Of a stretch of 64,000 nt of DNA, positions 2,635 to 58,049 are shown piece after piece. A program made the position numbers and the translations under genes. The stretch's first letter is position 1, and every line of letters starts with the position of its first letter. A model generated the notes under the pieces. That model worked only from the letters and a program-made list of their open reading frames with translations, searched no databases and was not told the DNA's origin. The DNA comes from a bacterium (GTDB taxonomy: Bacteria > Hinthialibacterota > Hinthialibacteria > H5-UNCL2), in assembly GCA_015075175.1 (NCBI GenBank), contig JABTUV010000009.1, forward strand, positions 1-64,000, in the 5' to 3' direction.

Positions 2635-2756
2635 GCGCAGCACGCCGCGCACCTACACCGTAGGGTGCGCACCGCGCACCACTCGCGCAGCACGCCGCGC
2701 ACCTACACCGTAGGGTGCGCACCGCGCACCATCCACCCAGCACGCCGCGCAACTAC
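2635..2756. repeat. Tandem REP/BIME-like array, 50-bp period
   Basis: Two full 50-bp units start at 2638 and 2688, and a partial third at 2738 (the word CAGCACGCCGCGC recurs exactly every 50 nt). Each unit holds two back-to-back palindromes whose GTAG heads diverge (CTAC, ACC, GTAG). The plus-strand one is GTAG followed by GGTGCGC, loop ACC, GCGCACC. The minus-strand one is GTAG followed by a GCGCGGC/GCTGCGC-type hairpin. The last GTAG on the minus strand supplies the TAG stop codon of gltD. Confidence 0.8.
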
Positions 2757-4198
2757 GGGGCGGAGAGGTTGGAGGAACCCATCAGGTAGAGATCCACGGC
2801 GCGCGCGACGCGCCGGCCCTCGGCAATCGCCCAAACCACCAGCGACTGCCCCCGCCGCATGTCCCCCGCCGCGAATACCCCGGGCACGCTGGTAGCGAAA
2901 TCGCCGTCGGTCTTGACGTTGCCCCGCTCGTCCAGTTCGACGCCCAGCTCGGACAGGAGGCCCTTCTTCTCAGGCCCGAGGAACCCCATCGCCAGCAGCA
3001 CGAGCTCGGCCGCCAAGGTGAACTCGCTGCCGGGGATTTCGCGCATCCGGCGACGCCCGTGCTCGTCCGGCTCGCTCCACTCCAATCGCACGCCGTGCAG
3101 TTGTTCGACCTTGCCGTCACGCCCGGAAAAAGACTTGGTCGAGACCGCCCAGTCGCGCGCGCAGCCCTCCTCGTGCGAGCTGGAGGTACGCAGGATGAGC
3201 GGCCAATACGGCCAGGGGCAGGCCTCGGTGCGGGCGGCGGGCGGCAAGGGCAGGAGCTCCAACTGCGTGACCGATTTCGCCCCCTGCCGATTGGCCGTAC
3301 CCACGCAGTCCGAGCCGGTGTCTCCGCCGCCGATCACGATCACGTGCTTGCCCGTCGCCAGGATTTCCTCCCCCTGGACGGGAAGGCCGGCCACGCGGCG
3401 ATTCTGCTGCGTAAGATACGGCATGGCGAAGTGGATGCCCGCCAGCTCCCGTCCGGGCACAGCGAGATCGCGCGGGGCGGTCGCGCCCCCGCAGAGGCAA
3501 ATGGCGTCGAAGCCCAGGAGCCGCGAGACGGGATAGTTGACGCCCACGTTTGCACCGGTCTCCAGGACTACGCCCTCCGCCCGCATCAACTCCAGCCGCC
3601 TCTCGACGACGCGCTTGTCCAGCTTGAAATCGGGGATGCCGTAGGTCAGAAGCCCGCCGATGCGGTCGTCGCGCTCCAACACCGTCACGCTGTGGCCGGC
3701 CTGGTTGAGCTGATCCGCCGCCGCCAGGCCCGCCGGACCCGAGCCGACCACGGCAATCGTCCTGCCGGTGCGAACCGCGGGCGGCCGGGGCGCCATCCAG
3801 CCCTCGCCAAAGCCGCGCTCGATGATGGCCTCCTCGATCTGCTTGATGGCGACCGGATCGGCGTTGATGCCCAGGACGCAGGCCGTCTCGCAGGGCGCCG
3901 GGCAGACGCGGCCCGTGAACTCGGGGAAGTTGTTGGTCGAAAGCAATGTGAACAACGCGTCCTTCCAGCGGCCGCGATAGACGTGGTCGTTCCATTCGGG
4001 GATCAGGTTGGCCAGCGGGCAACCGTGGCTGGTGTGGCAGAAGGGGGTGCCGCAGTCCATGCAACGCGCGCCCTGCTGCGACAGCTTCTCCGCCGGCAGG
4101 GGTCGCGTGAACTCGCGGTAATGCCGCACCCGCTCGACCACCGGCTCATAGCCACCCGTCTCCCGCGCTATCTCCATGAATCCTGTCAACTTGCCCAT
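2753..4198 (-). CDS. gltD: Glutamate synthase small subunit
   Basis: A 481-residue protein, the normal length for the beta subunit of NADPH glutamate synthase. It takes electrons from NAD(P)H through FAD and two 4Fe-4S clusters to the large subunit. Visible: cysteine clusters CMDCGTPFC (near residue 46) and CPAPCETAC (near 97), the FAD-binding [12 protein letters not shown] (near 148), and the second dinucleotide site [11 protein letters not shown] (near 286). I start at the ATG giving [12 protein letters not shown], the usual beginning of GltD. The longer reading upstream runs into repeat DNA. It lies downstream of gltB on the same strand, separated by about 280 nt of repeats instead of being tightly coupled. 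The stop codon lies in a REP-like element. Confidence 0.95.
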
Positions 4199-4251
4199 CG
4201 TCTTTGTTTTTACCACGCCTTTCTCGAAACCGGACGCCTCCGACGCCGTTC

Positions 4252-4281
4252 TCTCGATACGCGGAGTACCGCTACTCGAGA
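4252..4281. repeat. Swappable-stem hairpin, copy 1
   Basis: Nested hairpin: TCTCGA, TAC, inner stem GCGG, loop AGTA, CCGC, TAC, TCGAGA. The outer stem and both TAC spacers recur exactly at 17492-17525, but there the inner stem is GTCCGC/GCGGAC. Flanking words GCCGTTC and ACTCGGA are shared too. A partial extra copy (CTACTCGAGAACTC) follows at 4302-4315. Confidence 0.7.
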
Positions 4282-4392
4282 ACTCGGACTTGTGGTCTGC
4301 GCTACTCGAGAACTCAGGTGTTCTTAAACACGGTAACCAGAGCCGTGTCCTCGAGTAGGCCCCGCCGGCATCCCCCATCGGAGGCACGCGGT

Positions 4393-4457
4393 AACTTCGG
4401 GGCCGTCCCTCGATACGCTTCGCTATTCGGGAGAGCTATCGAGAGGCACGGCGGCTT
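4393..4457. repeat. 65-bp dispersed repeat, copy 1
   Basis: Matches 17397-17461 at 62 of 65 positions, from AACTTCGGGGCCGTC to GGCACGGCGGCTT. It contains a CTCGATA/TATCGAG inverted pair. It sits between gltD and gltB, beside the swappable-stem hairpin; the two modules are in the opposite order at 17.4 kb. Confidence 0.75.
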
Positions 4458-4474
4458 GCCGGCGCCAATCCCGC

Positions 4475-7723
<3,249 letters not shown>

Positions 7724-9056
7724 TGCCGATAGCCGGCGGGTGCTGATGCGGCGCTTCAGCCGTCATCCTCGATGATGCGCCCTGCTCGGTATCCAGAAGC
7801 AACATGCGGCTGGCTGGAACGCCCTTTCAGGCGAATCTCTTCCGCCGGGAAGTCGAGCACGCCGACTTCCGAGGCCAGGACGATGAGGCCGCCCTTGGTC
7901 ATCACGTAGCGGGCCGGGCGCAGGCCGTTGCGGTCCAGGGTCGCCCGATCTGCACCCGTTGGTGAAAACGATCGCCGCCGGCCGTCCCACGGCTCGTTCA
8001 TGCAGGCGTGGAACTCGTAAAAGGCGCGCTTGTTGGGGTCCATGCGCGTGTCGTTGCCCCACGCCTCGGGGATCAGCATCATCAGGGCGTGCGGCACGGA
8101 CCGCCCGCACAAGGTCAGCATCTCCACCACGTTGTCGATACAGGCCGAGTCGCTGCCCCCGGTTCGATCACCGGCAGGATCTTCTGATGTCTTCCCGAAT
8201 AGGTGTCGAAGAGCGCCTCGCGGGCGTGCATCCAGTTGATGTTGCCGCGGAGGGTGTTGATCTCGCCGTTGTGCGCAATGTAGCGGTACGGGTGCGCGCG
8301 GTCCCAGCTCGGGAAGGTGTTCGTGCTGAAGCGCGAGTGGACCAGGGCGATGGCCGTCTCCATCGCGGGGTCGGAGAGGTCGGGGAAGTACCGCGCGAGC
8401 TGGTCCGTGAGCAGCATGCCCTTGTAGACGAGGGTGCGGCTGGAGAGGCTGGTGACGTACCACTGCTCGGCGCCCGCCATGGTGGAGGTGCGGATCTCCG
8501 AGTAGCTGCGCTTGCGGATGAGGTAGAGCTTGCGCTCGAAGGTGACCTCATCGGTGACGTCGTCGCCGCGGCCGATGAAGATCTGGCGCATGAAGGGCTC
8601 GCAGGACTTGGCGGTCTCGCCGAGCGACGCGTTGTTGGTCGGCACGGTGCGCCAGCCGAGGAAGTGCTGGCCCTCGGACTGGATGATGCGCTCGAAGGCC
8701 TGCTCGATCTTGCGGCGGACGGTCGGATTGCGCGGGAGGAAGATGATTCCGCAGCCGTATTCGCCGGGGGACGGCAGGGTGAAGCGAGCCTTCCTGGCCG
8801 CCTCCTGCAGGAACTTGTGCGGCATCTGCAGGAGCACGCCCGCGCCGTCGCCCGTGTTGGGTTCGCTGCCGGCGGCGCCGCGATGGTCGAGGTTGGTCAG
8901 GACCTGGAGCGCCTGCTGCAGGATCTGGTTCGATTTGCGTCCGTGCATGTCCGCCACGAAGCCGACGCCGCAGGCGTCGGCCTCGAAACGCGGATCGTAC
9001 AAACCCGCCGGTCCGACCGGCAGGTCAACCCCGTCCCGGTATGCGTTCCTGGACAA
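7724..9056 (-). pseudogene. gltB: Glutamate synthase large subunit, N-terminal part, frame-shifted
   Basis: Encodes the glutaminase (Ntn hydrolase) domain and the start of the central domain. The frame from 9056 to about 8155 carries the nucleophile region ACGVGFVAD after a short propeptide, then NLDHRGAAGSEPNTGDGAG and HNGEINTLRGN. After VIEPG the frame changes: GSDSACIDNVVEMLTLCGRS to ATLDRNGLRPARY lies in another frame, with a second local slip near 7950-7990 and more near 7730-7830. I take TTG at 9056 as start because AGGAGG lies 6 nt before it; the upstream GTG at 9095 has no such site. With at least four indels it would not be translated whole unless these are sequence errors. Confidence 0.85.
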
Positions 9057-9547
9057 TCCCGTCCTCCTTTTTCCGGCGCCCCAAGGCGTCGTCACAACGG
9101 CGCGTCGCGGCGTGGGGAGACGGACGTCCGATGCCTGCCTAAAGTAACGGCGCGGAGAACGCCCCGCGCCTGCAAGCGTAAAGATACACTGGGCCGGTCC
9201 GGGGCGTCAATGACAAATAAGCCGGGAGGCGCAACCGTCAGGCTTGGCGGCGACGCACTCCCCGGCACGCGGGTCCGCCGCCCGGTTGCGCAGCACTCAC
9301 CCAGCGCCGTTGTTTCCTCCGAGAACCGTCATTTCGACCCACAACTGTCACTCCGACCCACAACTGTCATTTCGACCGAAGGGAGAAATCTCCCCCAACC
9401 TCTCTCGACCGTCCCCAACGAGCCGCGAGATTTCTCCCTTCGGTCGAAATGACAGCCGGTACGTTCCCGGCCTCTTCACCACCTTGCCGCCCGCGCTTCC
9501 GGGCGATATGATCTAACTGAGACCATTTCGCACGGACGGGACCAGGC
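9057..9547. other. Divergent intergenic region between gltB and the kinase gene
   Basis: About 490 nt without a credible gene. It must hold the promoters of gltB (minus) and the kinase (plus), but I see no clear -35/-10 pair. The part from 9317 is filled by the GTCATTTCGACC repeat family. Confidence 0.5.
9364..9455. repeat. Long inverted repeat of the GTCATTTCGACC family
   Basis: Perfect 29-nt inverted arms, CTGTCATTTCGACCGAAGG... at 9364-9392 and its complement at 9427-9455, around a 34-nt centre. Two partial direct copies of the arm start lie just upstream (9328, 9347). A related, less perfect element is at 15352-15437. This word family is widespread in environmental bacterial genomes (general knowledge). 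Confidence 0.8.
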
Positions 9548-12067: not shown

Positions 12068-12145
12068 AGGGACACGAGTCTTCCCCGAAGCTTTGCCTCT
12101 CTTGCAAGAGAACAAGAATCCTCCCTCGCGCCGCTCATGGGGTGG

Positions 12146-12165
12146 CACGGACCTCCAGGTCCGTG
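12146..12165. repeat. 20-nt palindrome with unpaired CC centre
   Basis: CACGGACCT, CC, AGGTCCGTG: a 9-bp stem. The element at 44000-44019, read on its minus strand, has the same layout and preceding GGTGG word, with three base pairs changed on both sides of the stem. Confidence 0.7.
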
Positions 12166-12199
12166 AGGGGCGAAGAGCCCGAGGCGCCCCGCCGCATTC

Positions 12200-12909: not shown

Positions 12910-14292
<1,383 letters not shown>

Positions 14293-14734: not shown

Positions 14735-15307
14735 ATGCTTCGGATCGTCTTTGCGGTCGCGCTGGCGGCTCTTTCAGGGTCGGCCTCCGCCATGACCGTG
14801 GTTCCCATGACGCTGAAGGACCTGGCCCAGAAGTCCGACGCCGCCTACGTGGTCAAGTGCCTGCGGGTGGATTCCTATGTCGTCACGTTGACGCCCGAAC
14901 GGCAGCAGATTTACACCAACTACCTCATGCAGGTTTCGGACACGCTGTCCGGCGAGGAGCGGCAGAACATCATCGTCACCGAACGCGGCGGCCAGGTCGG
15001 GCCGGTCCTGCAATGGACCCCCGGCGCGCCCAGCTACGCGACCGGCGAGGAGGCCATCGTTTTCCTGCACAAGACCGGCGACGGCTGGTCGACCAAGGGC
15101 TGGGCGCAGGGCAAGTACGCCATCACGACCGATGAGGAGACGGGCCGGAAACTGGTGCGGCGGGATCTGACAGGGCTTTCCTTCGCGGACAAGGACCTGA
15201 CTAAGTTCGTGGTTCGCCCCAAGGACCCTCCCAAGATGTACCTGGAGGACTTCTTGGCCGAGGTGCGCAAGTACGCGCGCGGCAAGAGCAAACCGCGCGG
15301 CCGGTAG
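14735..15307 (+). CDS. Small exported protein of unknown function
   Basis: 190 residues with a signal peptide (MLRIVFAVALAALSGSASA) and predicted cleavage after ASA. AAGGAGA lies upstream of the ATG, near the fxsA stop. The mature part is soluble, with a pattern of beta strands (GGQVGPVLQWTPGAPSYATGEEAIVFL) and a basic tail. I do not recognise a named family; similar exported proteins occur in environmental genomes as conserved hypotheticals. Its stop codon TAG is the TAG of a GTAG-headed hairpin. Confidence 0.75.
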   Translation: MLRIVFAVALAALSGSASAMTVVPMTLKDLAQKSDAAYVVKCLRVDSYVVTLTPERQQIYTNYLMQVSDTLSGEERQNIIVTERGGQVGPVLQWTPGAPSYATGEEAIVFLHKTGDGWSTKGWAQGKYAITTDEETGRKLVRRDLTGLSFADKDLTKFVVRPKDPPKMYLEDFLAEVRKYARGKSKPRGR

Positions 15308-15325
15308 GGTGGGTTCCACCCACCC
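15304..15325 (+). repeat. REP-like hairpin overlapping a stop codon
   Basis: GTAG (15304-15307), then GGTGGGT, TCC, ACCCACC as stem-loop-stem, extendable by one G:C pair. The TAG is the stop codon of the preceding exported protein. Confidence 0.75.
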
Positions 15326-15351
15326 TCATCGCCTGTGGCGCCGATCGGTGT

Positions 15352-15506
15352 TGTCATTTCGACCGCAGGAGAAATCTTGCGCCCAGCCTGCCGCGCCCGG
15401 CAGTGCGGGGAAGATTTCCCTAGCGGTCGAAATGACAGCTGGGGAGCGGTCGAAATGACAGCGGGGGAGCGGTCGAAAGGACAGCGGGGGAGCGGTCGAA
15501 AGGACA
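15352..15506. repeat. GTCATTTCGACC inverted repeat with 23-bp tandem tail
   Basis: Arms at 15352-15378 and 15411-15437 are inverted copies with two mismatches. Three tandem 23-bp units follow (15438, 15461, 15484; core GGGGAGCGGTCGAAAGGACA), each resembling the end of the right arm. Same family as 9364-9455. Confidence 0.8.
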
Positions 15507-15515
15507 GGTAGGCTG

Positions 15516-16953: not shown

Positions 16954-17325
16954 ATGCAGAAAGAGCGCCCTGACGAGTTCGTGGTGAACCGGGTGGAAGG
17001 CCCGCGGGGGGGCGGCGGGCCGCGGCCGGTGCCGCCGCCCGACCAGACCTTCATCAAGAAGCCGCGCCGTCCCGAGCGCGTCAAGATGCGGCTGGTGGAC
17101 AACCTCGTCATCGAGGGCATTCTCCACATCCGCGACAACTTCCGCCTCTCCGACGCCATGAACGATCCGCACATCTCGTTTCTGCCGCTCACCGAAGTGC
17201 GCGTGACCGACCACTACGGGCGCGTCCTGGAGGAGGCGGGCTTCATCTCCGTCAACCGCTCGCAGATCAAGTACATCTGCTGCCACGAGGACATCCACTT
17301 CAAGGGCGAGGAGCAGCCCACGTAG
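16954..17325 (+). CDS. DUF6812-like small protein
   Basis: 123 residues. The first 40 are rich in proline, glycine and charged residues and probably disordered. The rest (RPERVKMRLVDNLVIEGILHI ... DPHISFLPLTEVRVTD) looks like a compact beta domain of the DUF6812 type. Start ATG at 16954 has GGGAG 8 nt upstream; a GTG at 16948 overlaps the glyQS stop but lies too close to that site. Probably co-transcribed with glyQS. The stop TAG belongs to a GTAG-headed hairpin. No function is known. Confidence 0.7.
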   Translation: MQKERPDEFVVNRVEGPRGGGGPRPVPPPDQTFIKKPRRPERVKMRLVDNLVIEGILHIRDNFRLSDAMNDPHISFLPLTEVRVTDHYGRVLEEAGFISVNRSQIKYICCHEDIHFKGEEQPT

Positions 17326-17342
17326 GGTGCGCACCGCGCACC
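17322..17342 (+). repeat. REP-like hairpin overlapping a stop codon
   Basis: GTAG (17322-17325) followed by GGTGCGC, loop ACC, GCGCACC: a perfect 7-3-7 hairpin, the same as the plus-strand unit in the 2635-2756 array. The TAG ends the DUF6812 gene. Confidence 0.8.
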
Positions 17343-22572: not shown

Positions 22573-24719
<2,147 letters not shown>

Positions 24720-24728
24720 CGGGTTTCC

Positions 24729-24970
24729 TCACCTGCGGCGCTCCGCGCCGACCTCTCCCCAAGGAGAGGTGCAATCCTCTCCTCCGGGGAGATGGCATCC
24801 CCTCTCCCCTCGGGGAGGGTTAGGGTGAGGGGACGCGCCTGTCCACCTCACCCGGCGCTCGCGCCGACCTCTCCCTGGCAGGAGGTGCAATCCCTCTCCG
24901 AGGGAGGGTGCAACCCCTCTCCTTCTGGGAGATATGGTCCCTCTCCTCGGGAGAGGGTTAGGGTGAGGGG
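24729..24970. repeat. CCCTCACCCTAACCCTCTCC-type repeat, two tandem units
   Basis: Two units (about 24729-24831 and 24846-24970), each starting CTCACC..GGCGC..GCGCCGACCTCTCCC and ending GAGGGTTAGGGTGAGGGG, with several small CTCTCC/GGAGAG hairpins inside. Other copies at 32616-32740 (inverted) and 63308-63372. The family is common in many bacterial genomes (general knowledge). It fills most of the 320-nt gap, in which I see no gene. Confidence 0.8.
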
Positions 24971-30863: not shown

Positions 30864-30991
30864 GTAGCGCCGGCATCCTGCCGGCTTGCGTGGGCGGCGT
30901 CTCGCCCCCACGCTTCGCAGGCCATCCAACCGCCGACGGAAGCGTATGGACAAGATGTCCACACGCAAGCCGGCAAGATGCCGGCGTTACA
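30864..30991. repeat. Nested REP-like array of four hairpins
   Basis: Hairpins at 30869-30885 (GCCGGCA/TGCCGGC, loop TCC), 30890-30911 (GTGGGCGGCG/CGCCCCCAC with a bulge, loop TCT), 30947-30961 (TGGACA/TGTCCA, loop AGA) and 30969-30985 (GCCGGCA/TGCCGGC, loop AGA). The outer 30 nt at each end are inverted copies with two mismatches, headed by GTAGC on the plus and GTAAC on the minus strand. The minus-strand TAA is the stop codon of the isomerase gene. Confidence 0.8.
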
Positions 30992-32615: not shown

Positions 32616-32740
32616 CCCCTCACCCTAACCCTCTCCCCAAGGGAGAGGGGACCATGCCTCTCCCTTGGCAGAGGTCGGCGCAAAGCACATTCTCCACCTC
32701 TCCCTGCGGGAGAGGTCGGCGCGAAGCGCCGGGTGAGGGG
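32616..32740. repeat. CCCTCACCCTAACCCTCTCC-type repeat, inverted copy
   Basis: Starts CCCCTCACCCTAACCCTCTC and ends CGCCGGGTGAGGGGG, with GGTCGGCGCRAAGC words twice. It occupies the middle of a 426-nt gene-free gap between the isomerase and the glycosylase genes (32496-32921). Elsewhere in this gap I see no gene or clear promoter. Confidence 0.8.
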
Positions 32741-32921
32741 GACGCCGCGGTTGCCGGCGATGCGGCCATGCGGCGGCCTTTCCGCGTGATGATGTTACTC
32801 AAAACACGCGCGCTTGAAATTGCTCCCACCCGCGCGTCGAAACGACGACCGCCCGACTTCCGCGACACACACAGGGTCTCCCGGAGCTCCCTCCGGGCGA
32901 CTCGGCGCAGACGCCCGCCCT

Positions 32922-42160: not shown

Positions 42161-42390
42161 GCCGTGGGCGACCTGCGGCAGCATGTGGACAAAGGGGTTG
42201 AGGAGCCAAGCAGTTGCGAGCAGGGTTGCGAGCCAGGTTTCATCCGCACCGTCGCTTGTCCACCTGGTCGACGCTGGGCAAGCGGCCGAGATGCGCACAA
42301 GACGCCTGATTACGCCTGCCGGCACGCCAAATCAAGCTCGTGGATATGAAAACCTGTGAAATGAAACCCCACGCCGGTCGTGCGCAGCCC

Positions 42391-42430
42391 TAGCGCCGGC
42401 TTCCAGCCGGCTTGCGTGCGGGCATCCGGC
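42391..42430 (+). repeat. REP-like hairpin pair
   Basis: TAGC, then GCCGGCT, TCC, AGCCGGC (42395-42411), TTGCGTG, and a decayed second hairpin GTGCGGGC/GGCCCAC. The order equals the left half of the 30864-30991 array, but the first stem has a changed and still paired seventh position (T:A for A:T). Confidence 0.7.
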
Positions 42431-42507
42431 CCACATGCTTCGTGCCTCCGCCGCCCCGCGCCGCAAAGCAAACAATCCACATCTGCAGCTCTCTCTGCTG
42501 CGCACGC

Positions 42508-42549
42508 GGCGACCTGGAGGTCGCCGAGACCGGCGACTGCAAGTCGCCG
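42508..42549. repeat. Two REP-like hairpins of the GGCGAC group
   Basis: GGCGACCT, GG, AGGTCGCC at 42508-42525. Read on the minus strand, GTAAC followed by GGCGACT, TGC, AGTCGCC covers 42532-42552. The 470-nt gap 42161-42634 holds these, the pair at 42391 and the HU terminator, and no gene that I can see. Confidence 0.7.
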
Positions 42550-42571
42550 TTACGCATTCTCACGCGCGGGC

Positions 42572-43999: not shown

Positions 44000-44019
44000 G
44001 ACGGGTCTGGAGACCCGTC
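44000..44019. repeat. 20-nt palindrome with unpaired GG centre
   Basis: GACGGGTCT, GG, AGACCCGTC. Its minus strand aligns with 12146-12165, with three paired substitutions. It lies in the 290-nt region between the metal-binding gene and rhaI; no other structure is clear there. Confidence 0.7.
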
Positions 44020-44121
44020 CCACCCGAGATTGAGCCGGCAAGCGCGCGCATGGGGGCATGGAAACCGCCGGGACCCTGTGTTACAACGGGTCTGCCACTT
44101 CCCACGCATGGAGGTCTTGTC

Positions 44122-45344: not shown

Positions 45345-45430
45345 GTGCCACCCTTTTGTACTCAAAAGGGTGCTCGGGAGAGGTAAAGTCCTGACCTCCA
45401 TGCACCCCTTTGAGTACAAAGGGGTGGCAC
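45345..45430. repeat. Paired inverted hairpins between rhaI and rhaB
   Basis: CACCCTTTTG, TACT, CAAAAGGGTG (45349-45372) and CACCCCTTTG, AGTA, CAAAGGGGTG (45403-45426). The two are inverted copies; the one base-pair difference in the stem is changed on both strands. They could stop or stabilise the transcript between the two genes. Confidence 0.8.
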
Positions 45431-47047: not shown

Positions 47048-47064
47048 GCGACGAGGGATCTCGC

Positions 47065-49316: not shown

Positions 49317-49897
49317 GCATTCATCGCGTAGGCTTCAAGTTCTTCGCGGACGAGGAGAGCCGGATCGAGCTGGCCGAGTTCGTCCCCATCTTCCATCGTT
49401 GGATCGACGAAGAGGCCACGCCCGAGCCGGCCATCGATGTGGCCGACTACAAGCACGTGGTCGACGGGCCGGGCGTGATGTTGATCACGGTGGGAGGGAT
49501 GTACAGCGTGGAGCGGCAGGGCGGGCGGCTGGGGTTGCGCTACAAGCGGCTGCGCCCGGTCGAGGGCGGCTATCCGGCGGCGCTGGAGATCGCCTTCTCG
49601 GCCGTCCTGGCGGCCGCCTGGCGCCTGGAGAACGAGCCGGCGCTCCAGGGCCGCCTGGCGTTCGATCCCAGCCGCTTGGAATGCAACGTTTATGATCGCC
49701 TGGGTGGACCCGATGACTTGGAGTTGCGGCCAGCGCTGGTGCGATTGCTGGTCGGCGCCTATGCGGGCGTCCCGTTCGATCTAGAGCGCGCGATCGATCC
49801 GCGCGCGCCCTACACGCTCATGCTTCGGACGAGCGGCCCGCCGGCGCCCACGCTGGCGGCCCTGCGGGACGCTCTGCCGGCTCCAGCGGCGCGCTGA
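49313..49897 (+). CDS. Conserved small protein coupled to the sulfite reductase
   Basis: 194 residues, overlapping the reductase stop by ATGA, so co-translated. The sequence RVGFKFFADEESRIELAEFVPIFHRWI (here in part: FKFFADEES, FVPIFHRWI) and DVADYKHVVDGPGVMLIT belong to a soluble alpha/beta protein seen next to other genes as a conserved hypothetical. No catalytic motif. A role in assembling or feeding the reductase is a guess from position. Its last 80 nt overlap the 3' end of cobA on the other strand. Confidence 0.7.
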   Translation: MSIHRVGFKFFADEESRIELAEFVPIFHRWIDEEATPEPAIDVADYKHVVDGPGVMLITVGGMYSVERQGGRLGLRYKRLRPVEGGYPAALEIAFSAVLAAAWRLENEPALQGRLAFDPSRLECNVYDRLGGPDDLELRPALVRLLVGAYAGVPFDLERAIDPRAPYTLMLRTSGPPAPTLAALRDALPAPAAR

Positions 49898-50621: not shown

Positions 50622-50630
50622 CCGCCCGCC

Positions 50631-50852
50631 TCAGATATGATACTCGGGCGTCTGCACCCGCCCGTAGGAGATGCGCGCCCAGACGCGCTCGTGCACGTAG
50701 TATCCGATCACTTTCACGATCATGTCGGCCAGGCCGGTAATGCCCGCCCAGTCCCATCGCCCCGAAACGATATAGACCACGGCGACGGTCGAAAGCGAGC
50801 CGAACAGCCGGTAGCTGATCGCCTTCACCAACGCCCGACGAGGATGTTCCAT
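50631..50852 (-). CDS. DUF2061 small membrane protein
   Basis: 73 residues with two hydrophobic segments (SLSTVAVVYIVSG and the ITGLADMIVKVIGYYVHERVW region). The pattern RALVKAISYRLFGS at the start and YYVHERVW near the end are DUF2061 hallmarks. The domain is often found fused or adjacent to sulfate-activation genes, as here, but its function is unknown. First gene of the minus-strand cobA operon. Confidence 0.85.
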   Translation of the reverse strand: MEHPRRALVKAISYRLFGSLSTVAVVYIVSGRWDWAGITGLADMIVKVIGYYVHERVWARISYGRVQTPEYHI

Positions 50853-50869
50853 TCCGCCTGCCTCTCTCT

Positions 50870-50962
50870 CCCCCCTTAAGAATAAGGTGGGATGGGTGAG
50901 ATACGTCCCCGCGTGCGCCCAGCTCGCCCTTTATCCCCCCTGACCCCCCTTTTTAAGGGGGG
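50870..50962. repeat. CCCCCTTAAG / AAGGGGGG repeat pair
   Basis: CCCCCTTAAGAATAAGGTGGG at the left and ATCCCCCCTGACCCCCC plus TTTTTAAGGGGGGG at the right; a common dispersed C/G-rich repeat type. It lies in the leader of the cobA operon. Confidence 0.55.
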
Positions 50963-50996
50963 GAACCTCGCAAAGCCGAGCACTCTAATCATGGAA

Positions 50997-51025
50997 TTAA
51001 TATATTCGGAGCCGCAGGTTGTCAA
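50997..51025 (-). promoter_or_regulatory. Promoter of the DUF2061-cobA operon
   Basis: Minus strand: -35 TTGACA (complement of 51020-51025, perfect), 17-nt spacer, -10 TATTAA (complement of 50997-51002, 4 of 6). Its -35 box overlaps that of the divergent plus-strand promoter. Confidence 0.65.
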
Positions 51026-51047
51026 GAACAAAAGTAAGTATTATAAT
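51019..51047 (+). promoter_or_regulatory. Promoter of the met8-cysH-cysD-cysN genes
   Basis: -35 TTGTCA (51019-51024, 5 of 6), 17-nt spacer, -10 TATAAT (51042-51047, perfect). Confidence 0.8.
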
Positions 51048-51063
51048 CAGGTAAGTAATGATT
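51044..51063 (+). promoter_or_regulatory. Possible operator shared by the sulfur promoters, copy 2
   Basis: TAATCAGGTAAGTAATGATT begins inside the -10 box and runs over the start site, as the 47028-47047 copy does. It has AATCA/TGATT half-sites. Confidence 0.5.
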
Positions 51064-51110
51064 TTGCTTGAAGTGGTGCTGGAGTTGGTCTAACGTGCGG
51101 GCGTTGGAGG

Positions 51111-51760
51111 GTGGGAGAGTGGGACGTATGGGACCAAGGGGACCTAGGGGCGCACACGAGCGGTCTTTCCGCGGCGCTGGTGTTGGCCGGGCAGCCGTGC
51201 CTGGTGGTGGGAGGGGGCGCTGGCGACGATGCGGGTCGAGCGCTCCTGGCCGCCGAGCGCGAGCGTGGCCGGCCCGGCCTTTGAACCGCTGCAGCACTGG
51301 CCGCCGAGGGGCGCATCACGCACCATGCCCGCGCTGCCACGCCGGCGGACGTGGAGGCCGCCGCCGTCTTCTTCTGTGAAGATGATCCTCCTACGACCGT
51401 GCGCTCGTAGCTACCGCCCGGCGACTGCGGCGTCTCGTGAATGTGACCGACGTGCCCGCCGAGTGCAACTTACATGCCCGCCGTGGTGCGACGCGGCCCC
51501 GTCACCATCGGCATCAGTACCGGCGGCGCCAGTCCGTCTGGCGCGGCGCCTGCGGAGACTATCGAGGACACCGTCGGCCCTGAATATGGCCGATTGGCCG
51601 AAATGTTGGGAGGAATGCGAGAGGTCAAGGCGCAGTGCCTCGACCTGCCGGGCGCGCGGCCCTCTGGCAGGCCATGCTGGATCTGGAGGCCGCCGAACTC
51701 TTGCGCCGGGGAGAGAGCGAAGCCGCCGCCGCCGTGTTGAGAGCCACCTGCCGGAAGCGC
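51111..51760 (+). pseudogene. Precorrin-2 dehydrogenase / siroheme ferrochelatase (Met8-like), frame-shifted
   Basis: Pieces of the CysG N-terminal/Met8 family appear in order but in different frames: the NAD-binding ALVLAGQPCLVVGGGA (about 51170-51220), RRLVNVTDVPAECNLH and then MPAVVRRGPVTIGISTGGASP (51474 on, here 21 so read as RGPVTIGISTGGASP), EYGRLAEMLGGMRE, and WQAMLDLEAAELLRRGE before 51760. The enzyme oxidises precorrin-2 and inserts iron to make siroheme. At least four indels. The start is unclear because a GTCCCATAGG-type repeat (51113-51150) lies across it; GTG 51111 is one option. Confidence 0.75.
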
Positions 51761-51804
51761 AGCACGCTGCGCAACTACGCCCGCGCGGCACGCTGCGCAA
51801 CTAC
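51757..51804 (-). repeat. Two REP-like hairpins between met8 and cysH
   Basis: On the minus strand, GTAGTT followed by GCGCAGC, GT, GCTGCGC (51757-51778) and again, with GCCGCGC as last arm, at 51783-51804. The cysH ribosome-binding site GGGAGG follows directly. Confidence 0.8.
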
Positions 51805-51817
51805 GGGAGGCGCGACG

Positions 51818-52510
51818 ATGAAACCGTCCGAGGCTCAACTGCCGCCTGGCGGCGTCAACTTGAGGGCAAGCCGCCCCAGGCCATGCTGGCTTGGGCGGTC
51901 GATACCTTCCGGCCGGCTGGTCTTTGCGACCTCGCTGGGACCTGAGGACCAAGTCCTCACCCACATGCTGGCGACCGCCCATCTCCCCATCCCCATCTTC
52001 ACGCTGGACACGGGGCGGCTTTTCCGAGACTTACTCGCTGCTGGAGACGACCGAGAAGCATTACGGCAAGAGGATCGAGGTCTTCTTTCCCGACCTGACG
52101 GAAGTCGAGGCCATGGTCCACGAGCACGGCGTCAACCTGTTTAGAAAAAGCGTTGAGCTGCGCAGACATTGCTGCGGAGTGCGCAAGCTGGCGCCCCTGC
52201 GGCGCGCTGGCGGGCAAGGCCGCCTGGATCGTGGGCCTGCGCCGCGCCCAGTCGTTGACCCGCCAAGAACTCCACGTTGCAATGGGACGACGCCAACGGC
52301 CCTCGCCGGGTTTCAGTCCGCTCGCCGACTGGAGCGAGTCGGACGTGGGACTTCATCCGAAACCACCGGATTCCTTACAATCCGCTGCACGATCAGGGGT
52401 ACCCCAGCATCGGTTGCGCGTGCTGCACGCGCGCCGTCCTGCTGGGCGAAGACCCGCGCGCCGGCCGCTGGTGGTGGAGCGAGAGCACCGCGAATGCGGG
52501 TTGCACACGA
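51818..52510 (+). pseudogene. cysH: APS reductase, [4Fe-4S] assimilatory type, frame-shifted
   Basis: The ATG at 51818 has GGGAGG 7 nt upstream. Pieces of CysH in order: KPPQAMLAWAVDTFRPAGL, VFATSLGPEDQVLTHML, PIFTLDTGRLF, then [63 protein letters not shown] and the end ECGLH. The CC and C..C pairs mark the cluster-containing form that reduces APS (not PAPS) to sulfite. Frames change near 51850, 51945, 52025, 52190, 52300 and 52490. It ends where a REP-like array begins. Confidence 0.85.
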
Positions 52511-52515
52511 CGCCG

Positions 52516-52641
52516 GTAGTTGCGCAGCGTGCTGCGCCTGCACCACCACCCGTAATTGCGCAGCGTGCTGCGCGGACGCCACGCTGGCGCGGCACGCTGC
52601 GCAACGACGCACCGACGACGCGCGGCACGCTGCGCAACTAC
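52516..52641. repeat. REP/BIME-like array between cysH and cysD
   Basis: Four hairpins of the GCGCAGC/GCTGCGC group: plus strand at 52516-52537 (GTAG head) and 52552-52573 (GTAA head), minus strand at 52587-52608 (GTCG head) and 52620-52641 (GTAG head). Two forward followed by two reverse copies is the layout of a BIME. The first GTAG follows the CysH end ECGLH after 11 nt. Confidence 0.85.
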
Positions 52642-52654
52642 GGCGGGGGGGATC

Positions 52655-53529
52655 ATGAACCACCTCGACCGCCTCGAGTCCAGAGCGTGCATATCCTGCG
52701 CGAGGCCCATCGCGGTTCAAACAGCTCTGCATGTTGTGGTCCATCGGCAAGGATAGCACGGTCCTCCTGTGGTTGACGCGCAAGGCGTTCTTCGGCCACG
52801 TGCCGTTTCCGCTGGTGCACATCGACACATCCTACAAGATTCTGAGATGATCGCCTATCGCGACGAATTGGGCGCGCTGGGCTGTGGCTGATCGTGGGCC
52901 GGAACCGGGCGGCGCTGGCGGCGGGACAGAGCTACCCCCACGGCACGCTGGATCGCCTCGGATGCTGCAAGGCCCTGAAGACGGATGCCCTCCGCCACAC
53001 GCTGGCCGGCGACTGGCCCCGCCGCGTCTATGATCCCCAAACCGGCGAGTGGCGGGAGGAGATCAACGGCGCGCCGTTCACCGGCGTGATCGTGGGCGCG
53101 CGCGCCGACGAGGAAGGCAGCCGCTCGAAGGAACGCTACTTCTCCCCCCGAAACGTCCAGAGCGACTGGGAGGTGGACGACCAGCCGCCGGAAATCTGGA
53201 ATTACTACAAGACCAGCTTTGCTCCCGGCACGCACGTGCGCATCCATCCGCTCCTGGACTGGACCGAGCTCAACCTGTGGGAGTACATCCAGCGCGAGGC
53301 GATACCCGTCATTCCGCTCTACTTCAATCGCGGCGAGGGCAGGCGCTACCGCTCGCTGGGATGCTGGCCGTGCACCCAGCCGGTGGAATCGGAGGCGCGA
53401 ACGGTCGCCGAAGTGGTCGAGGAGCTGGCCTCGGGCAAGTTCGCCAACGTGGCGGAACGCTCCGGCCGCGCCCAGGACAAGGACGACGGCGGCACCCTGG
53501 AGACGCTGCGCCGCGAAGGGTACATGTGA
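52655..53529 (+). CDS. cysD: Sulfate adenylyltransferase subunit 2, 5' part frame-shifted
   Basis: CysD, the PP-loop ATP sulfurylase subunit that makes APS with CysN. The start MNHLDRLES is typical; the next pieces ([30 protein letters not shown] holding the PP-loop, here [13 protein letters not shown], and [15 protein letters not shown]) lie in changing frames up to about 52890. From 52894 one frame runs to the end: [63 protein letters not shown] and [16 protein letters not shown]. About four indels. GGGGGGG precedes the ATG. The last residues GYM are standard. Confidence 0.92.
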
Positions 53530-53556
53530 TGGCCAGCCGCGCGCGTCCGCAGCACC

Positions 53557-53640
53557 CGCCGGAGTACAAACTTCAGTTTGCGCGCGGGCAAGCTAAGGCT
53601 TCTACTCCGGAGAACGCGCCGGAGTACAAACTTCAGTTTG
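53557..53640. repeat. Direct repeat of the GTACAAACTTCAGTTTG hairpin
   Basis: CGCCGGAGTACAAACTTCAG plus TTTG occurs at 53557-53580 and 53617-53640, period 60. Each holds CAAACT, TC, AGTTTG. The same hairpin is at 58030-58043 inverted. It lies between cysD and cysN. Confidence 0.8.
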
Positions 53641-53683
53641 CTGTCAGCGTCATCATTCCGCCTGAAAGGAGCCTGAAGAAGTA

Positions 53684-55498
53684 ATGGCAACGGGCGTTCA
53701 CCAGCGCCAGCAGCTGGACGTGGTCGTGGTCGGTCACGAGGACCACGGCAAGAGCACGGTCATCGGGCGCCTTCTGGCCGATACGGGGTCCCTGCCGGAA
53801 GGCAAGCTGGAGGAAGTGCGCGCGCGCTGCGCCCGCTCCGCCCGCCCCTTCGAGTACGCCTTCCTCCTGGACGCGCTCAAGCACGAGCAGGCCCAGGGCA
53901 TCACCATCGACACCGCCCGCTGCTTCTTTCGCACCGCGCGCCGCAACTATATCGTCCACGACGCGCCCGGACATATCGAGTTTCTCAAGAACATGGCGAC
54001 CGGCGCGGCCCGCGCCGACTGCGCCCTCCTCGTCATCGACACCCTGGAGGGCGTGCAGGAAAACAGCAAGCGCCACGGCTACATCCTCGGCATGTTGGGC
54101 GTGCGCCAGTTGGCCGTGCTCATCAACAAGATGGACCGCGTCGATTATCGCTTCGAGGTCTACGACGCCATCCGGCGGCAGTACGGCCAGTTCCTGGCGC
54201 ATCTTTCGGTGTTTCCACTGGCCTATATTCCCATCAGCGCGCGCGAGGGCGTCAACCTGGCGCGGCGCGGCGGCCAGACGCCCTGGTACGACGGGCCGAC
54301 CGTGCTGGAGCAACTGGAGAGCTTCTCCCGCTCCGGCGAGGCGCTGGACAAGCCCTTTCGCATGCCCGTGCAGGACATCTACAAGTTCACCGAAGACGAC
54401 GACGACCGCCGCATCATTGCCGGCACGGTCGAGAGCGGCCTGGTGCGAGTCGATGACACGGTGGTGTTTTATCCCTCCGGCAAGCGCTCTGCCGTCAAGA
54501 GCATCGAGGCCTTTTCCGCGCCGGCGCGCCGGGAAGTAGGCGCGGGATACGCGGCAGGCTTGACGCTTTCGACCCAGGTTTACGTGCGGCCGGGCGAACT
54601 CCTGTGCAAGGCCGGCGAACCGCCGCCGGTCGTGGGCAGCCGCTTTCGCGCCAGCCTGTTCTGGATGGGCCGCGCGCCGCTGGTGCGGGACCGAACCTAT
54701 CGCCTGCGGGTGGGCGCCGCCGCCGTCGGGGTGCGCCTGGCCGAGGTCCGGCACGTGTTGGATACGACCGAGCTCTCCAGCCTCCTGCACAAGCAGGAAG
54801 TGGAACGCCACGACGTGGCCGAATGCGTGCTGGAGACGGTGCGGCCGGTCGCCTTCGACCCGCATGGCGAGCTCTTTGCGACCGGCCGGTTCGTGATCGT
54901 GGACGGCTACGAAATCGCCGGCTGCGGGGTGATTCTCGCCCCGGAGGAGGCGCGTGAGTCGCTCTTCGCCGCCGACCTACGACGCCGCGAGCACGTCTGG
55001 CAGCGTGGCCACGTTTCCTCCGAACAACGCGCCGCCCGCTATGGGCATACCGGCAAGTTCATCGTCTTCACCGGACTGCCCGACGCCGGCAAGGAAGCGC
55101 TGGCCAAGGAACTGGAACGCCGCCTCTTCGACCGTGGCTGCGCGACCTACTTTCTGGGCGTGGGCCATCTCTACGCCGAACTGGCCGAGGGCGAGCACGA
55201 CAAGAGCCTGGCCCGCGACGACGAGATCACCCATCTAGGTCAGTTGGCGCGCGTCCTAGCGGATACGGGCCTCCTTTTCATTACCACCCTGGCGGAGGCC
55301 GACGATTTCGAGATCGAGCGCCTGCGGCGGCTGGTCGCGCCGCACGAGCTCTTCGTCGTCCACGTGGGCGAGGCCGTCTTCGCGCGCGTGCAACCCGACG
55401 TGACTCTGCCGTCACGACCCGACCACGCGTCGGCCCTGGCGGAGATCGAAGCCTCCCTCTCCCGGCACAACGTCTTGCGCTGGGACTACAGCATCTGA
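53684..55498 (+). CDS. cysN: Sulfate adenylyltransferase large subunit fused to a degenerate APS kinase (CysNC)
   Basis: 604 residues. Residues 1-440 are CysN, the GTPase that drives APS synthesis by CysD: P-loop GHEDHGKST (17-25), [12 protein letters not shown] (near 93), NKMD (148-151), then two beta-barrel domains. From about 458 an APS-kinase fold begins ([21 protein letters not shown]). Its P-loop reads GLPDAGKE, with Glu where kinases need Ser/Thr, and later motifs are weak, so the kinase is probably inactive. That agrees with the APS-reducing type of CysH here, which needs no PAPS. Last gene of the plus-strand sulfur operon. Confidence 0.92.
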
Positions 55499-55505
55499 GC
55501 ATATC

Positions 55506-55660
55506 GTAGCGGCGACATCTTGTCGCCGATGACCGTAACGGCGACATCTTGTCGCCGGTCTCGGGGACGTCTCGTCCCCGATGGTGGGCTGCGTGTGTCG
55601 GCAGGATGCCGACACGACCGGCGACCTGGAGGTCGCCGCTAGGGGGCGACATCTCGCCGC
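55506..55660. repeat. REP-like array of six hairpins with four different stems
   Basis: Starting 8 nt after the cysN stop: GTAGC + GGCGACA/TGTCGCC (55511-55527); GTAAC + the same (55540-55556); CGGGGACG/CGTCCCCG (55562-55580); GTGTCGGCA/TGCCGACAC (55595-55615); CGGCGACCT/AGGTCGCCG (55619-55638, CTAGC on its minus strand); and a decayed GGCGACA copy (about 55646-55660). Loops are TCT, TCT, TCT, GGA, GG. Confidence 0.85.
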
Positions 55661-55881
55661 CGCGGCTCCCCGCTGGCAACTCCGCCTTTCCGCGCTATAA
55701 ACCCAGGTAGGCTCAGCAGTTAAAAAAAGCGCCGGGTTCGCGCAAAAGGGTTGCGATTTGGCTTAAATTCCGGTAGAAACCAGTCGAAACCTCTTTAGAA
55801 CGATAAAGTTACTGACAACAGGCTCCAGGTGATTCTCAGAAAGGCCGGGCTTCATTCGACCCCCAGTAGGACAGTCCTGTA
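55661..55881. other. Leader of the LysM/M23 gene
   Basis: About 220 nt with no gene. A lower-GC stretch (55710-55830) probably carries the promoter; I could not pick one convincing -35/-10 pair. Confidence 0.35.
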
Positions 55882-57417
55882 ATGGCGATGCGTACCCATA
55901 AGCCTCGATTCCCGGCCGCCGTGCTGGCCGCTGCATGGTTTATCGGGTGGTTCTGCGCCTGTCCCCCGGTCCACGCCGCATCCTCCCAGCTGCGTACCCT
56001 GGACCGCTACCACGTGGTCGCCCCGGGCGAGAATCTCTACCGCATCGCGCTGGCTTACGGAGTCGATCTGAAAGACCTGTGCGAACTCAACGGCATCACC
56101 GATCCGGGGTCCATCGAAAAAGGGCAACGCTTGCGCATTCCGCGCAAGAAACAGACGCGCGTGGGCATCTATCACGTGGTGGAGGAAGGGGAGACCCTGT
56201 CCGCGATCGCGGCGGCGTATCACTTTACCGAGCGCAGTCTGGCCAGCGTGAACCGGATTCGCACCAACACGCCGCTGCGGCGCGGCCAGTTGATCTGGAT
56301 TCCCGGGGCGGGTGAGCGGCAAGCCGTGGCCCAATCCCCTGCATCGCGGCCCACAACGGTTGCGCGGAGTCCGTCGCAGTCCGCCGACTTCCAGCCGGCG
56401 GAACGGCCCGGCAGCCGCCGCGCCGTCAAGGCCGCCGAGGAGGCGGCCGAGGAATGGCGCGGCTCGCGTCCCGCCGTCCCGCTGCGCAACCTCGCCGGTC
56501 CGCCCGCAACGACCGCCGCACCCGCCCCCCGGGTAGCGCAGAAGACCGGCCACTACCACGTGGTGGCGCGCGGCGAGAACCTGCGCCGCATCGGCGAGAA
56601 GTACGGCATCTACAACTGGCACTGGCTGGCCCAGGTCAACCATCTGGTCGATCCCAACGCGTTGGAGCTGGGCCAGCGAATCTACATCCCGTCGCTGGCC
56701 GAGCGGCCCGCGCTGGCCGCCCTCGAGCCGTCCGCGCCCGATGCCGTGACCGGAGCCTCGGTCGATCTTCTGGCATCCGCGCCGTTCAAGCTGGAGCGCG
56801 AGCCGTTGGACGGCTTGGACGGAGGTCTGTCCACGCGCGTCGCCGACTTGGTCCCACCGCTGCCGGACAACGGCGACGGGACGGTCGATCCGGCCCCGCC
56901 GATTCCCTTGGAAGATGCACCGGCCCCGCCGTCGATCCCCGTGCGCATGACGGCCGTGCCGCTCGACTTCGCCTGGCCGCTGCCGGTTCGCGCGGTGCGA
57001 ACCGTCCCCTTCGGCGTGCAGCGCGGCAAGACCTTCCACCGCGGCGTCGACCTGGCCGCCGCTGAAAACACCCCCATCCTGGCGGTCGCCGACGGAGTTG
57101 TCGAAGTGGTTGGCTCGGAGGGCGATTCCTGGGGCAAGTTCTTCGGCAACTACGTCTTCATCAAGCACGGCGAGTACAAGAACAAGACCTGCCGCACCAT
57201 TTACATGCATGCCTCCAAGATCCTGGTCAAGGCGGGCCAGCCGGTCAAGAAGGGGCAAGTGATTGCGCGCGTGGGCAATACCGGCCGCACCCACGGGCCG
57301 GACGGCGGATACCACCTGCACCTCGAGCTTTGGTACGGCGACGACTGCGTGGATCCCTGGCCCGTGCTTGAGCCTAAGCGCCCTCCCCGCGACGAGAACA
57401 TGGCATCGGCGGAGTAG
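55882..57417 (+). CDS. Exported LysM / M23 metallopeptidase
   Basis: 511 residues with a signal peptide (to about residue 34, VHAAS). Three LysM peptidoglycan-binding modules at about residues 43-87, 96-142 and 225-270 (YHVVAPGENLYRIALAYGVD, YHVVEEGETLSAIAAAYHF, YHVVARGENLRRIGEKYGIY), the last two separated by a proline/alanine-rich linker. The C-terminal M23 domain has the zinc ligands HRGVDLA (near 386) and HLHLEL (near 480) and YMHAS between. Complete motifs indicate an active peptidase (not the EnvC/NlpD inactive type). Cell-wall remodelling at the envelope. Confidence 0.92.
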   Translation: MAMRTHKPRFPAAVLAAAWFIGWFCACPPVHAASSQLRTLDRYHVVAPGENLYRIALAYGVDLKDLCELNGITDPGSIEKGQRLRIPRKKQTRVGIYHVVEEGETLSAIAAAYHFTERSLASVNRIRTNTPLRRGQLIWIPGAGERQAVAQSPASRPTTVARSPSQSADFQPAERPGSRRAVKAAEEAAEEWRGSRPAVPLRNLAGPPATTAAPAPRVAQKTGHYHVVARGENLRRIGEKYGIYNWHWLAQVNHLVDPNALELGQRIYIPSLAERPALAALEPSAPDAVTGASVDLLASAPFKLEREPLDGLDGGLSTRVADLVPPLPDNGDGTVDPAPPIPLEDAPAPPSIPVRMTAVPLDFAWPLPVRAVRTVPFGVQRGKTFHRGVDLAAAENTPILAVADGVVEVVGSEGDSWGKFFGNYVFIKHGEYKNKTCRTIYMHASKILVKAGQPVKKGQVIARVGNTGRTHGPDGGYHLHLELWYGDDCVDPWPVLEPKRPPRDENMASAE

Positions 57418-57540
57418 TCCCGGCCCCGGCGCCGACCTTTGCGCTTCCCAGCGAGCTCTTCCCGACGTAAACCATTGGACACCTCCAGCCCGCGCGCGCT
57501 ATAACCGTGCGTTCCCCAATCCCTTGCCGAGGGTGCGCTG

Positions 57541-57975
57541 ATGAAGTGGGTGACCCGTTCGCACGTGCACGTGGACCGCGTGGCCTGCCCCTGGCTGATC
57601 ACGCGCTTCATCGACTCGGAGGCCGAGTTCATCTTCGTCCCCCGCCAAGACGTGGCGCGGGTAGTTGCGGAGTGCGGAGCGATTCCCTTCGACGTGCCCG
57701 GCTGCGAACTGGGGCATCACGCAGGGCGATGCAGCTTCGAGGCCATCATCCGCAAGTATGAACTGAAGGATCGCGCGCTTCTGCGCATGGCCAAGGTCAT
57801 CAACGCCGCCGACACCGATCAGCTGGACAGAGACCCGCTGGCGCCCGGCCTGGAGGCCATCGCCGCCGGCTTCTCACTGCGTTTTCCCGACGACAAGGAG
57901 AACATCCAGCGCCAGTTCCCCCTCTACGACGCTCTCTACACCTGGTGCAGGATGCACGTGCGACGATCCCGCTGA
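57541..57975 (+). CDS. ChrB C-terminal-domain-like (chromate resistance) protein
   Basis: 144 residues, equal to the C-terminal domain of ChrB alone: MKWVTRSHVHVDRVACPWLI, RFIDSEAEFIFVP, CELGHHAGRCSFEAI and ADTDQLDRDPLAPGLEAIA. GAGGG lies before the ATG. In proteobacteria ChrB regulates chromate resistance, but stand-alone domains are common and may have other roles. No chrA transporter is near. Confidence 0.87.
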   Translation: MKWVTRSHVHVDRVACPWLITRFIDSEAEFIFVPRQDVARVVAECGAIPFDVPGCELGHHAGRCSFEAIIRKYELKDRALLRMAKVINAADTDQLDRDPLAPGLEAIAAGFSLRFPDDKENIQRQFPLYDALYTWCRMHVRRSR

Positions 57976-58007
57976 TTGCCCATTCGCGCCGAGCGCGCAT
58001 GAGAGCC

Positions 58008-58049
58008 CAGGCTTCAGCCTGCCTGTATGCAAACTGAAGTTTGTACTCC
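58008..58049. repeat. Two hairpins: CAGGCT/AGCCTG and CAAACT/AGTTTG
   Basis: CAGGCT, TC, AGCCTG at 58008-58021 and CAAACT, GA, AGTTTG at 58030-58043, followed by GTACTCCGG. The second is the inverse of the 53557 hairpin. Both have TC/GA centres. Confidence 0.75.

What the first reader, a model, noticed from the sequence alone, without database searches (positions are those of the whole stretch)
2635..58049. A family of REP-like hairpins with constant architecture and freely changing stems
At least 20 short palindromes in gene-free DNA share one plan: often a GTAG or GTAA head, a 6-9 bp stem and a 2-4 nt centre, very often TCC/TCT or its complement. The stem sequence differs between sites but is always self-complementary: GGTGCGC, GGTGGGT, GCCGGCA, GCCGGCT, GGCGACA, GGCGACT, GGGGACG, GTGTCGGCA, GCGCAGC, CAAACT. 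Known REP elements mobilised by RAYT (Y1) transposases have a GTAG head and a hairpin, but one genome usually has a few stem families with related sequences. Here many unrelated stems sit side by side (six hairpins, four stems, in 55506-55660). That suggests either several RAYTs or a process that rewrites palindromes as units.
Basis: partly seen in the sequence, partly recalled or inferred. Interest (0 to 1): 0.85.

Follow-up and report, generated by a model that had tools for sequence, protein, structure and literature searches.

The report
Four-hairpin REPIN repeats with mismatched ends
The many different little hairpins are real, and most belong to two families of small mobile repeats built like known bacterial REPINs, each end carrying one fixed hairpin and one variable one, probably copied by an enzyme (RAYT) that reads the flanking tag and hairpin tip rather than the stem.

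Summary
In 864 kb of this genome GTAG is the commonest head before a 7+ bp stem (88 vs 6 in shuffled DNA), and TCC/TCT loops are 10-fold enriched. The stems are not unrelated, however. Most TCY-loop hairpins are parts of two REPIN families (about 107 and 70 arms genome-wide). Each complete element is HP1-HP2-interior-HP2'-HP1' with GTAR heads outward. HP1 is fixed per family; HP2 varies by compensatory changes and comes as an 'A' (..CATCYTG..) or 'G' (..CGTCYCG..) kind. In family I, 23 of 25 scored elements carry one of each, as do most of family II. Family I interiors are about 22 bp and differ in nearly every copy. Two copies on different contigs share arms and interior but not flanks, so the whole unit moves. 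No RAYT linked to these families was found in this 84%-complete genome, but 57 of 80 relatives of one RAYT clade, across many phyla, are flanked mainly by TCY-tipped hairpins with other stems. This is a new variant of known RAYT/REPIN elements; heterodimers and spacer hairpins have published precedents. No process that rewrites palindromes is shown.

The parts
30864..30990 (.). Complete family I REPIN, 127 bp: GTAG + HP1 (30869-30885) + HP2 of the G kind, bulged (30888-30913) + unique interior (about 30917-30938) + HP2' of the A kind (30942-30966) + HP1' (30969-30985) + head GTAA on the minus strand; just upstream of a rhaT-like gene
   Evidence: single-strand fold z = -8.9 (plus strand) and -10.9 (minus strand); RhaT domain placement
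55535..55642 (.). Complete family II REPIN, 108 bp: GTAA + HP1 (55539-55557) + GTC linker + HP2 of the G kind (55561-55581) + interior + HP2' of the A kind (55595-55615) + HP1' (55619-55638) + CTAG.
   Evidence: fold z = -8.3
55506..55528 (+). Solo family II HP1 with GTAG head, 8 bp after the stop codon of a CysN/APS-kinase-like gene (53684-55498)
55644..55662 (+). Decayed GGCGAC..TC hairpin remnant next to the family II element
   Evidence: sequence
42390..42441 (+). Degenerate family I arm, A kind (head CTAG, HP1 with TTCCA tip)
42507..42553 (-). Family II arm: GTAA, HP1 GGCGACTTGCAGTCGCC, HP2 GGCGACCTCCAGGTCGCC
2660..2680 (+). GTAG GGTGCGC-ACC-GCGCACC hairpin, inside a 50-bp unit present twice in tandem (2635-2734)
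2710..2730 (+). Second GTAG GGTGCGC hairpin of the tandem
17322..17342 (+). GTAG GGTGCGC-ACC-GCGCACC hairpin
15304..15326 (+). GTAG GGTGGGT-TCC-ACCCACC hairpin
51757..51778 (-). GTAGTT GCGCAGC-GT-GCTGCGC hairpin
52516..52537 (+). GTAGTT GCGCAGC-GT-GCTGCGC hairpin
52552..52573 (+). GTAATT GCGCAGC-GT-GCTGCGC hairpin
53561..53581 (+). GGAGTAC AAACTTCAGTTTGC hairpin (family flanking RAYT L002)
53621..53641 (+). GGAGTAC AAACTTCAGTTTGC hairpin
58029..58049 (-). GGAGTAC AAACTTCAGTTTGC hairpin
12141..12165 (+). GGTGG-headed hairpin CACGGACCT-CC-AGGTCCGTG, same head as hairpins beside the broken RAYT at C1:968820-969280
   Evidence: weak, since the GGTGG head alone is not enriched over control heads
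44000..44024 (-). GGTGG-headed hairpin GACGGGTCT-CC-AGACCCGTC
   Evidence: weak, same caveat

Best explanation
The TCY-loop hairpins are the two ends of miniature mobile elements (REPINs) moved in trans by a RAYT, a Y1-type single-strand DNA transposase. Shown here: each element is two outward-facing arms; an arm is GTAR + HP1 + short linker + HP2; the two arms of an element usually carry different HP2 kinds (A-TCY-T and G-TCY-C); HP2 stems change by compensatory pairs; one element was found at two sites with different flanks, so the unit GTAR...YTAC is what moves; relatives of one RAYT clade are flanked by hairpins of the same tip and head grammar with many stems. Inferred: the RAYT reads the head and the R-TCY-Y tip and needs only helical pairing from most of the stem, so stems can drift if both sides change; the two unlike ends either act as left and right ends, as in IS200/IS605 elements, or keep the element from forming one long perfect hairpin that SbcCD would destroy. 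The responsible RAYT is missing from this assembly or lost. The other stems in the list (GCGCAGC, GGTGCGC, GGTGGGT, CAAACT) are separate REP families.
For: GTAG 88 vs 6 shuffled and TCY loops 62 vs 6. About 107 family I and 70 family II arms genome-wide, 0 for the reversed control patterns. Outward-facing dimers, mostly 104-133 bp. Unlike-end rule: 23 of 25 scored family I dimers versus 12.7 expected; only 3 of 100,000 shuffles reached 23. In family II most dimers pair a GTCGTG-linked TCGGCA hairpin with a GTCTCG- or GTCGCG-linked GGGGACG or GGCGGCG hairpin (read by eye). Covariation in HP2, with arms chosen on HP1 alone: 33 double changes versus 10.2 expected if the two sides were independent; HP1 tip pair A-T 56 and G-C 34 with 6 broken. 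Mobility: C8:81312 and C12:182121 are 90% identical over about 133 bp including the interior, with flanks at 31% and 24%. RAYT link: TCY hairpins 1.77 per kb near versus 0.18 per kb far; TCY dominant at 57 of 80 loci in many phyla. L159, L165 and L191 form a supported clade with GTAA heads and A plus G ends, like this genome. Published biochemistry: TnpA-REP of S. maltophilia needs specific loop bases and a perfect stem, while complement swaps in the stem have modest effects (PMC8266576).
Against: No RAYT next to family I or II in this genome or in G011. Interiors of family I are unrelated between nearly all copies although arms are about 82% alike, which simple recent copying does not predict. 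By tip base alone the unlike-end rule is not significant in family II (7 of 10); it appears only when linker and stem class are used, by eye. Stem type also clusters on the RAYT tree (24 changes versus 29.4 shuffled), so the stem is not wholly free.
Confidence: 0.8

Rival explanations
1. Stems are rewritten as units: imperfect hairpins are corrected to perfect ones by template switching at the replication fork, or arms are converted from other copies, so stems change in pairs without selection by a transposase.
For: Double changes exceed independent change about threefold. Arms stay alike while interiors are unrelated in most copies, which shared-arm conversion would produce.
Against: In the one clear sibling pair, interior (3 of 28) and arms (about 10 of 105) differ at the same rate. 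RAYT-linked hairpins in other phyla show the same grammar. Heads and loops, which template switching would not protect, are also conserved.
Confidence: 0.12
2. The repeats are host RNA elements (terminators, mRNA stabilisers or binding sites) kept at each site by selection on structure, and mobility is incidental.
For: Very stable folds (z = -8.3 to -10.9); compensatory changes; in the window one lies right after a stop codon and one just upstream of a gene.
Against: No Rfam match in the window. The unlike-end rule and GTAR head have no evident RNA reason. One unit sits in two unrelated flanks. RAYT genes of relatives are flanked by such hairpins.
Confidence: 0.08
3. Each stem family has its own RAYT and the many stems simply mean many past or present RAYTs.
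For: RAYT L002 sits in CAAACT hairpins and a broken third RAYT sits beside CACAGGC hairpins. Stem type clusters on the RAYT tree.
Against: Within one planctomycete RAYT locus several stems with one head and tip coexist (GCAGACA, GCAGGCA, GCAGGCG; L165), and HP2 variants within family I share one arm design.
Confidence: 0.3

Closest known systems
REPINs of Pseudomonas fluorescens and their RAYTs (Bertels and Rainey 2011, PMC3116915)
   Same: Two inverted REPs with conserved ends and a less conserved spacer; fold as a long hairpin or clover; probably a mobile unit served by a RAYT in trans
   Different: Here each arm has two hairpins and the inner ones differ between arms; the interior is essentially unique per copy in family I; no RAYT for it found in the genome
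GTAG-tagged REP superfamily (Di Nocera et al. 2013, PMC3733652)
   Same: GTAG head, 6-13 bp stems, short loops, outward (HH) dimers, several families per genome; heterodimers were noted; some spacers differ in sequence but not length; some CGTC-3 spacers of A. tumefaciens carry two stem-loops 20-23 bp apart
   Different: Here the GTAG families combine the two-hairpin arm with a near-strict A-kind/G-kind end rule; TCY tip grammar tied to one RAYT clade
E. coli and S. maltophilia TnpA-REP systems (PMC8266576)
   Same: Single-strand hairpin recognised by GTAG head plus loop or bulge; perfect stem needed in S. maltophilia
   Different: The loop here is TCY, not GCT; no biochemistry for this clade in the papers read
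TIR-flanked RAYT-like genes (TIRYT, PMC3733652)
   Same: Gene L001 in this genome lies between long inverted repeats GAAAATTAGGGTCAGCGCCTAATTTT
   Different: Unrelated to the GTAG hairpins; a related MITE-like copy sits at window 5330-5420

Membership tests
GTAG-tagged REP superfamily | Unpaired GTAG-like tag at the foot of a short hairpin, in excess of chance | tested here: met
   GTAG 88 vs 6 in shuffles, top of all tetranucleotides
GTAG-tagged REP superfamily | Stem 5-13 bp, short loop, many copies per genome | tested here: met
   About 107 and 70 arms in two families; others repeated too
GTAG-tagged REP superfamily | Mostly intergenic | tested here: inconclusive
   Checked only at a few window sites with Pfam-supported neighbours
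REPIN | Two inverted REPs, heads outward, at a set distance | tested here: met
   59 pair records between families I and II, most 104-133 bp long
REPIN | Whole dimer is the mobile unit | tested here: met
   One pair of sibling copies with unrelated flanks; only one clear pair
RAYT-mobilised element (REPtron) | RAYT gene flanked by the same REPs in the same genome | tested here: not met
   Not met for families I and II in this 84% complete genome or in G011; met for the CAAACT family
RAYT-mobilised element (REPtron) | Same head and tip grammar beside a RAYT clade elsewhere | tested here: met
   57 of 80 loci TCY-dominant; GTAA-head A/G-end clade L159, L165, L191
RAYT-mobilised element (REPtron) | Cleavage of the hairpin by the RAYT | not testable with these tools
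   Needs biochemistry

The most novel reading that the evidence does not exclude
A clade of RAYTs reads only the GTAR or GGAR head and an R-TCY-Y tip, treats the stem as any perfect helix, and requires two chemically distinct ends (A and G); the elements then persist by arm renewal while their interiors turn over, so that one enzyme supports an open-ended set of stem sequences.
Probability: 0.2. Interest if true: 0.7.

Novelty: new variant of a known kind. Interest (0 to 1): 0.45.

Why it matters
How RAYTs recognise REPs is known biochemically for a few cases, and why dimers prefer unlike partners was called unexplained in 2013 (PMC3733652). The TCY-tip clade, spread over many phyla with one tip and many stems, and the near-strict A/G end rule give a natural test set for both questions: stem-swapped hairpins for recognition, and A/A, A/G and G/G dimers for the end rule.

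Tried and rejected
Chance hairpins in GC-rich DNA: rejected. Rfam families: no match in the window. A RAYT of the TCY clade in this genome: not found; only a 35% match to L001 and a frame-shifted third RAYT with other hairpins. Head base (GTAG or GTAA) marking the A or G end in family I: no association. Tip base of HP1 pairing A with G across arms: no pattern. A general GGTGG-headed family as strong as GTAG: not supported, control heads give similar counts. An early count of all hairpins near RAYTs was inflated by masked N runs; the corrected count is. Automatic classing of family II ends was poor, so those were read by eye.
Full report
What was claimed and what is there. All of this is present. 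In the window, stems of 9 bp or more are 15 against about 2 expected. In 864 kb of the same genome, 22 palindrome cores recur three or more times against none in shuffled DNA. Of all tetranucleotides, GTAG is the one most often found at the foot of a 7+ bp hairpin (88 against 6), and TCT and TCC loops are 32 and 30 against 3 each.

The genome and its RAYTs. The window is part of contig 49 of a 4.98-Mb, 84% complete genome from a small phylum with 14 held genomes. One class member, G012, matches a record named Candidatus Omnitrophota JPNA_maxbin.304. A Pfam search finds two Y1 transposases, both matching NCBIfam's REP-associated tyrosine transposase, slightly under its cut-off. L002 lies between arrays of GGAGTACAAACTTCAGTTTG hairpins, the family also seen at window 53561-53641 and 58029-58049. 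L001 lies between long inverted repeats unrelated to GTAG hairpins. A third RAYT at C1:968820-969280 is frame-shifted and has GGTGG-headed CACAGGC hairpins on both sides.

The two main families. Patterns anchored on the first hairpin and its head find 107 family I arms (GTARC GCCGGC R TCY Y GCCGGC) and 70 family II arms (GTAR CGGCGAC..GTCGCCG), with none for the reversed control pattern. Most form outward-facing dimers of 104-133 bp. Each arm carries two hairpins: HP1, constant within the family, then a linker, then HP2. In family I, HP2 is GCGTG-variable-CACGC. One kind (A) has a perfect stem around CATCYTG; the other (G) surrounds CGTCYCG and usually has a single bulged base (the bulge is my reading of the sequences). 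Of 25 dimers in which both HP2s could be scored automatically, 23 have one of each kind, against 12.7 expected, a number reached by 3 of 100,000 shuffles. In family II automatic scoring by tip base was poor (7 of 10, not significant). By linker and stem class, read by eye from the listed sequences, most pair a GTCGTG-TCGGCA arm with a GTCTCG- or GTCGCG-GGGGACG or GGCGGCG arm; L130 and L138 (9435) do not fit clearly.

The window elements. 30864-30990 is a complete family I element and 55535-55642 a complete family II element. The 'six hairpins, four stems' of 55506-55660 are the four hairpins of the latter, a solo HP1 in front and a remnant behind. Both elements fold far better as single strands than shuffled sequence (z -8.3 to -10.9). 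In the family I fold the outer hairpins of the two arms pair with each other while the unlike inner hairpins fold on their own.

Stem change is compensatory. With arms chosen on HP1 only, the A-kind HP2 shows 33 double changes against 10.2 if the sides were independent. The most variable pair is G-C 34, C-G 11, A-T 2. HP1 itself alternates A-T (56) and G-C (34) at the tip pair, with 6 broken. This is what a structure-reading enzyme, or a palindrome-correcting process, would leave.

Interiors and mobility. Family I interiors cluster at 18-28 bp (mode 22), and their mutual similarity (0.57) is close to shuffled (0.54), whereas arms are about 82% alike. One exception is informative: copies at C8:81312 and C12:182121 share the interior (25 of 28) and 90% of the whole element but not the flanks (31% and 24%), so the complete GTAR...YTAC unit was copied. 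In that pair arms and interior have diverged about equally, so it gives no sign of arm repair. Why most other copies keep good arms with unrelated interiors is not settled: long-lived lineages under selection for mobility, conversion of arms, or selection at each site all fit.

RAYT link outside this genome. In G012 a RAYT (L067) is flanked by GGGAGC-GCGGGCGTCCCGCCCGC on both sides. A scan with it returned 80 relatives from many phyla. Within 500 bp of these genes, TCY-loop hairpins occur at 1.77 per kb against 0.18 per kb further off, and at 57 of 80 loci they are the dominant kind. The head is GGAG, GGAC or GTAA and the stem varies. On a tree, head (15 changes, 20.2 shuffled) and six-base stem (24, 29.4 shuffled) both cluster with the RAYT, so the stem is not completely free. 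Three planctomycete RAYTs (L159, L165, L191) form a supported clade with GTAA or GTAC heads, A-kind hairpins on one strand and mostly G-kind on the other. G011, of the same class as the window genome, has about 58-bp elements with a GCCGGCATCC hairpin at one end and GCCGCCGTCT at the other. The A/G design is therefore probably older than the families seen here.

Comparison with the literature. GTAG REPs, outward dimers, several families per genome, unlike partners, spacers of equal length but different sequence, and even two stem-loops 20-23 bp apart inside a dimer are on record (PMC3733652). That paper calls the preference for unlike partners unexplained and suggests protection from SbcCD. 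REPINs as mobile dimers with a less conserved spacer are known (PMC3116915). Loop and head recognition with tolerance of stem swaps is shown for S. maltophilia TnpA-REP (PMC8266576). What seems new is the combination: two-hairpin arms, a near-strict A/G end rule in family I, and a TCY-tip grammar tied to a RAYT clade across phyla. Only open-licence papers could be searched.

Verdict. A real feature, explained as RAYT-type REPINs with a new arm design: a new variant of a known kind. Shown: architecture, excess, covariation, one transposed unit, RAYT-clade grammar. Inferred: that a RAYT moved these two families, that it reads head and tip, and the reason for unlike ends.

Noticed in passing
window 5330-5420; L001 1110-1210 and 1885-1975: Inverted-repeat MITE-like unit (AAATTGGGGTCAGCGCCCAATTT type) resembling the terminal inverted repeats of the RAYT-like gene L001.
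   Followed up: partly
window 24719-24970 and 32616-32748, 63310: CCCTCTCCC..GGGAGAGGG palindromes within longer CCTCACCCTAACCCTCTCCC repeats, a separate repeat family.
   Followed up: no
window 45345-45430: Two facing 10-bp hairpins CACCCTTTTG-TACT-CAAAAGGGTG and relatives, repeated elsewhere in the genome sample.
   Followed up: no
window 9353-9455 and 15352-15507: CTGTCATTTCGACCG inverted repeats with a 23-bp tandem array AGCGGTCGAAATGACAGCTGGGG.
   Followed up: no
G000 C1:87020-87461: Tandem array of GTAG GGTGCGC hairpins at 39-bp spacing.
   Followed up: no
G000 C1:968640-971100: Frame-shifted RAYT with GGTGG-headed hairpins whose stems differ slightly (ATCAGGCG, CACAGGCG, CACAGGCC, CTCAGGCC).
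   Followed up: partly
L172, L182: RAYT loci with near-identical proteins in records of different phyla and long arrays of TCY hairpins: recent transfer or binning error.
   Followed up: no
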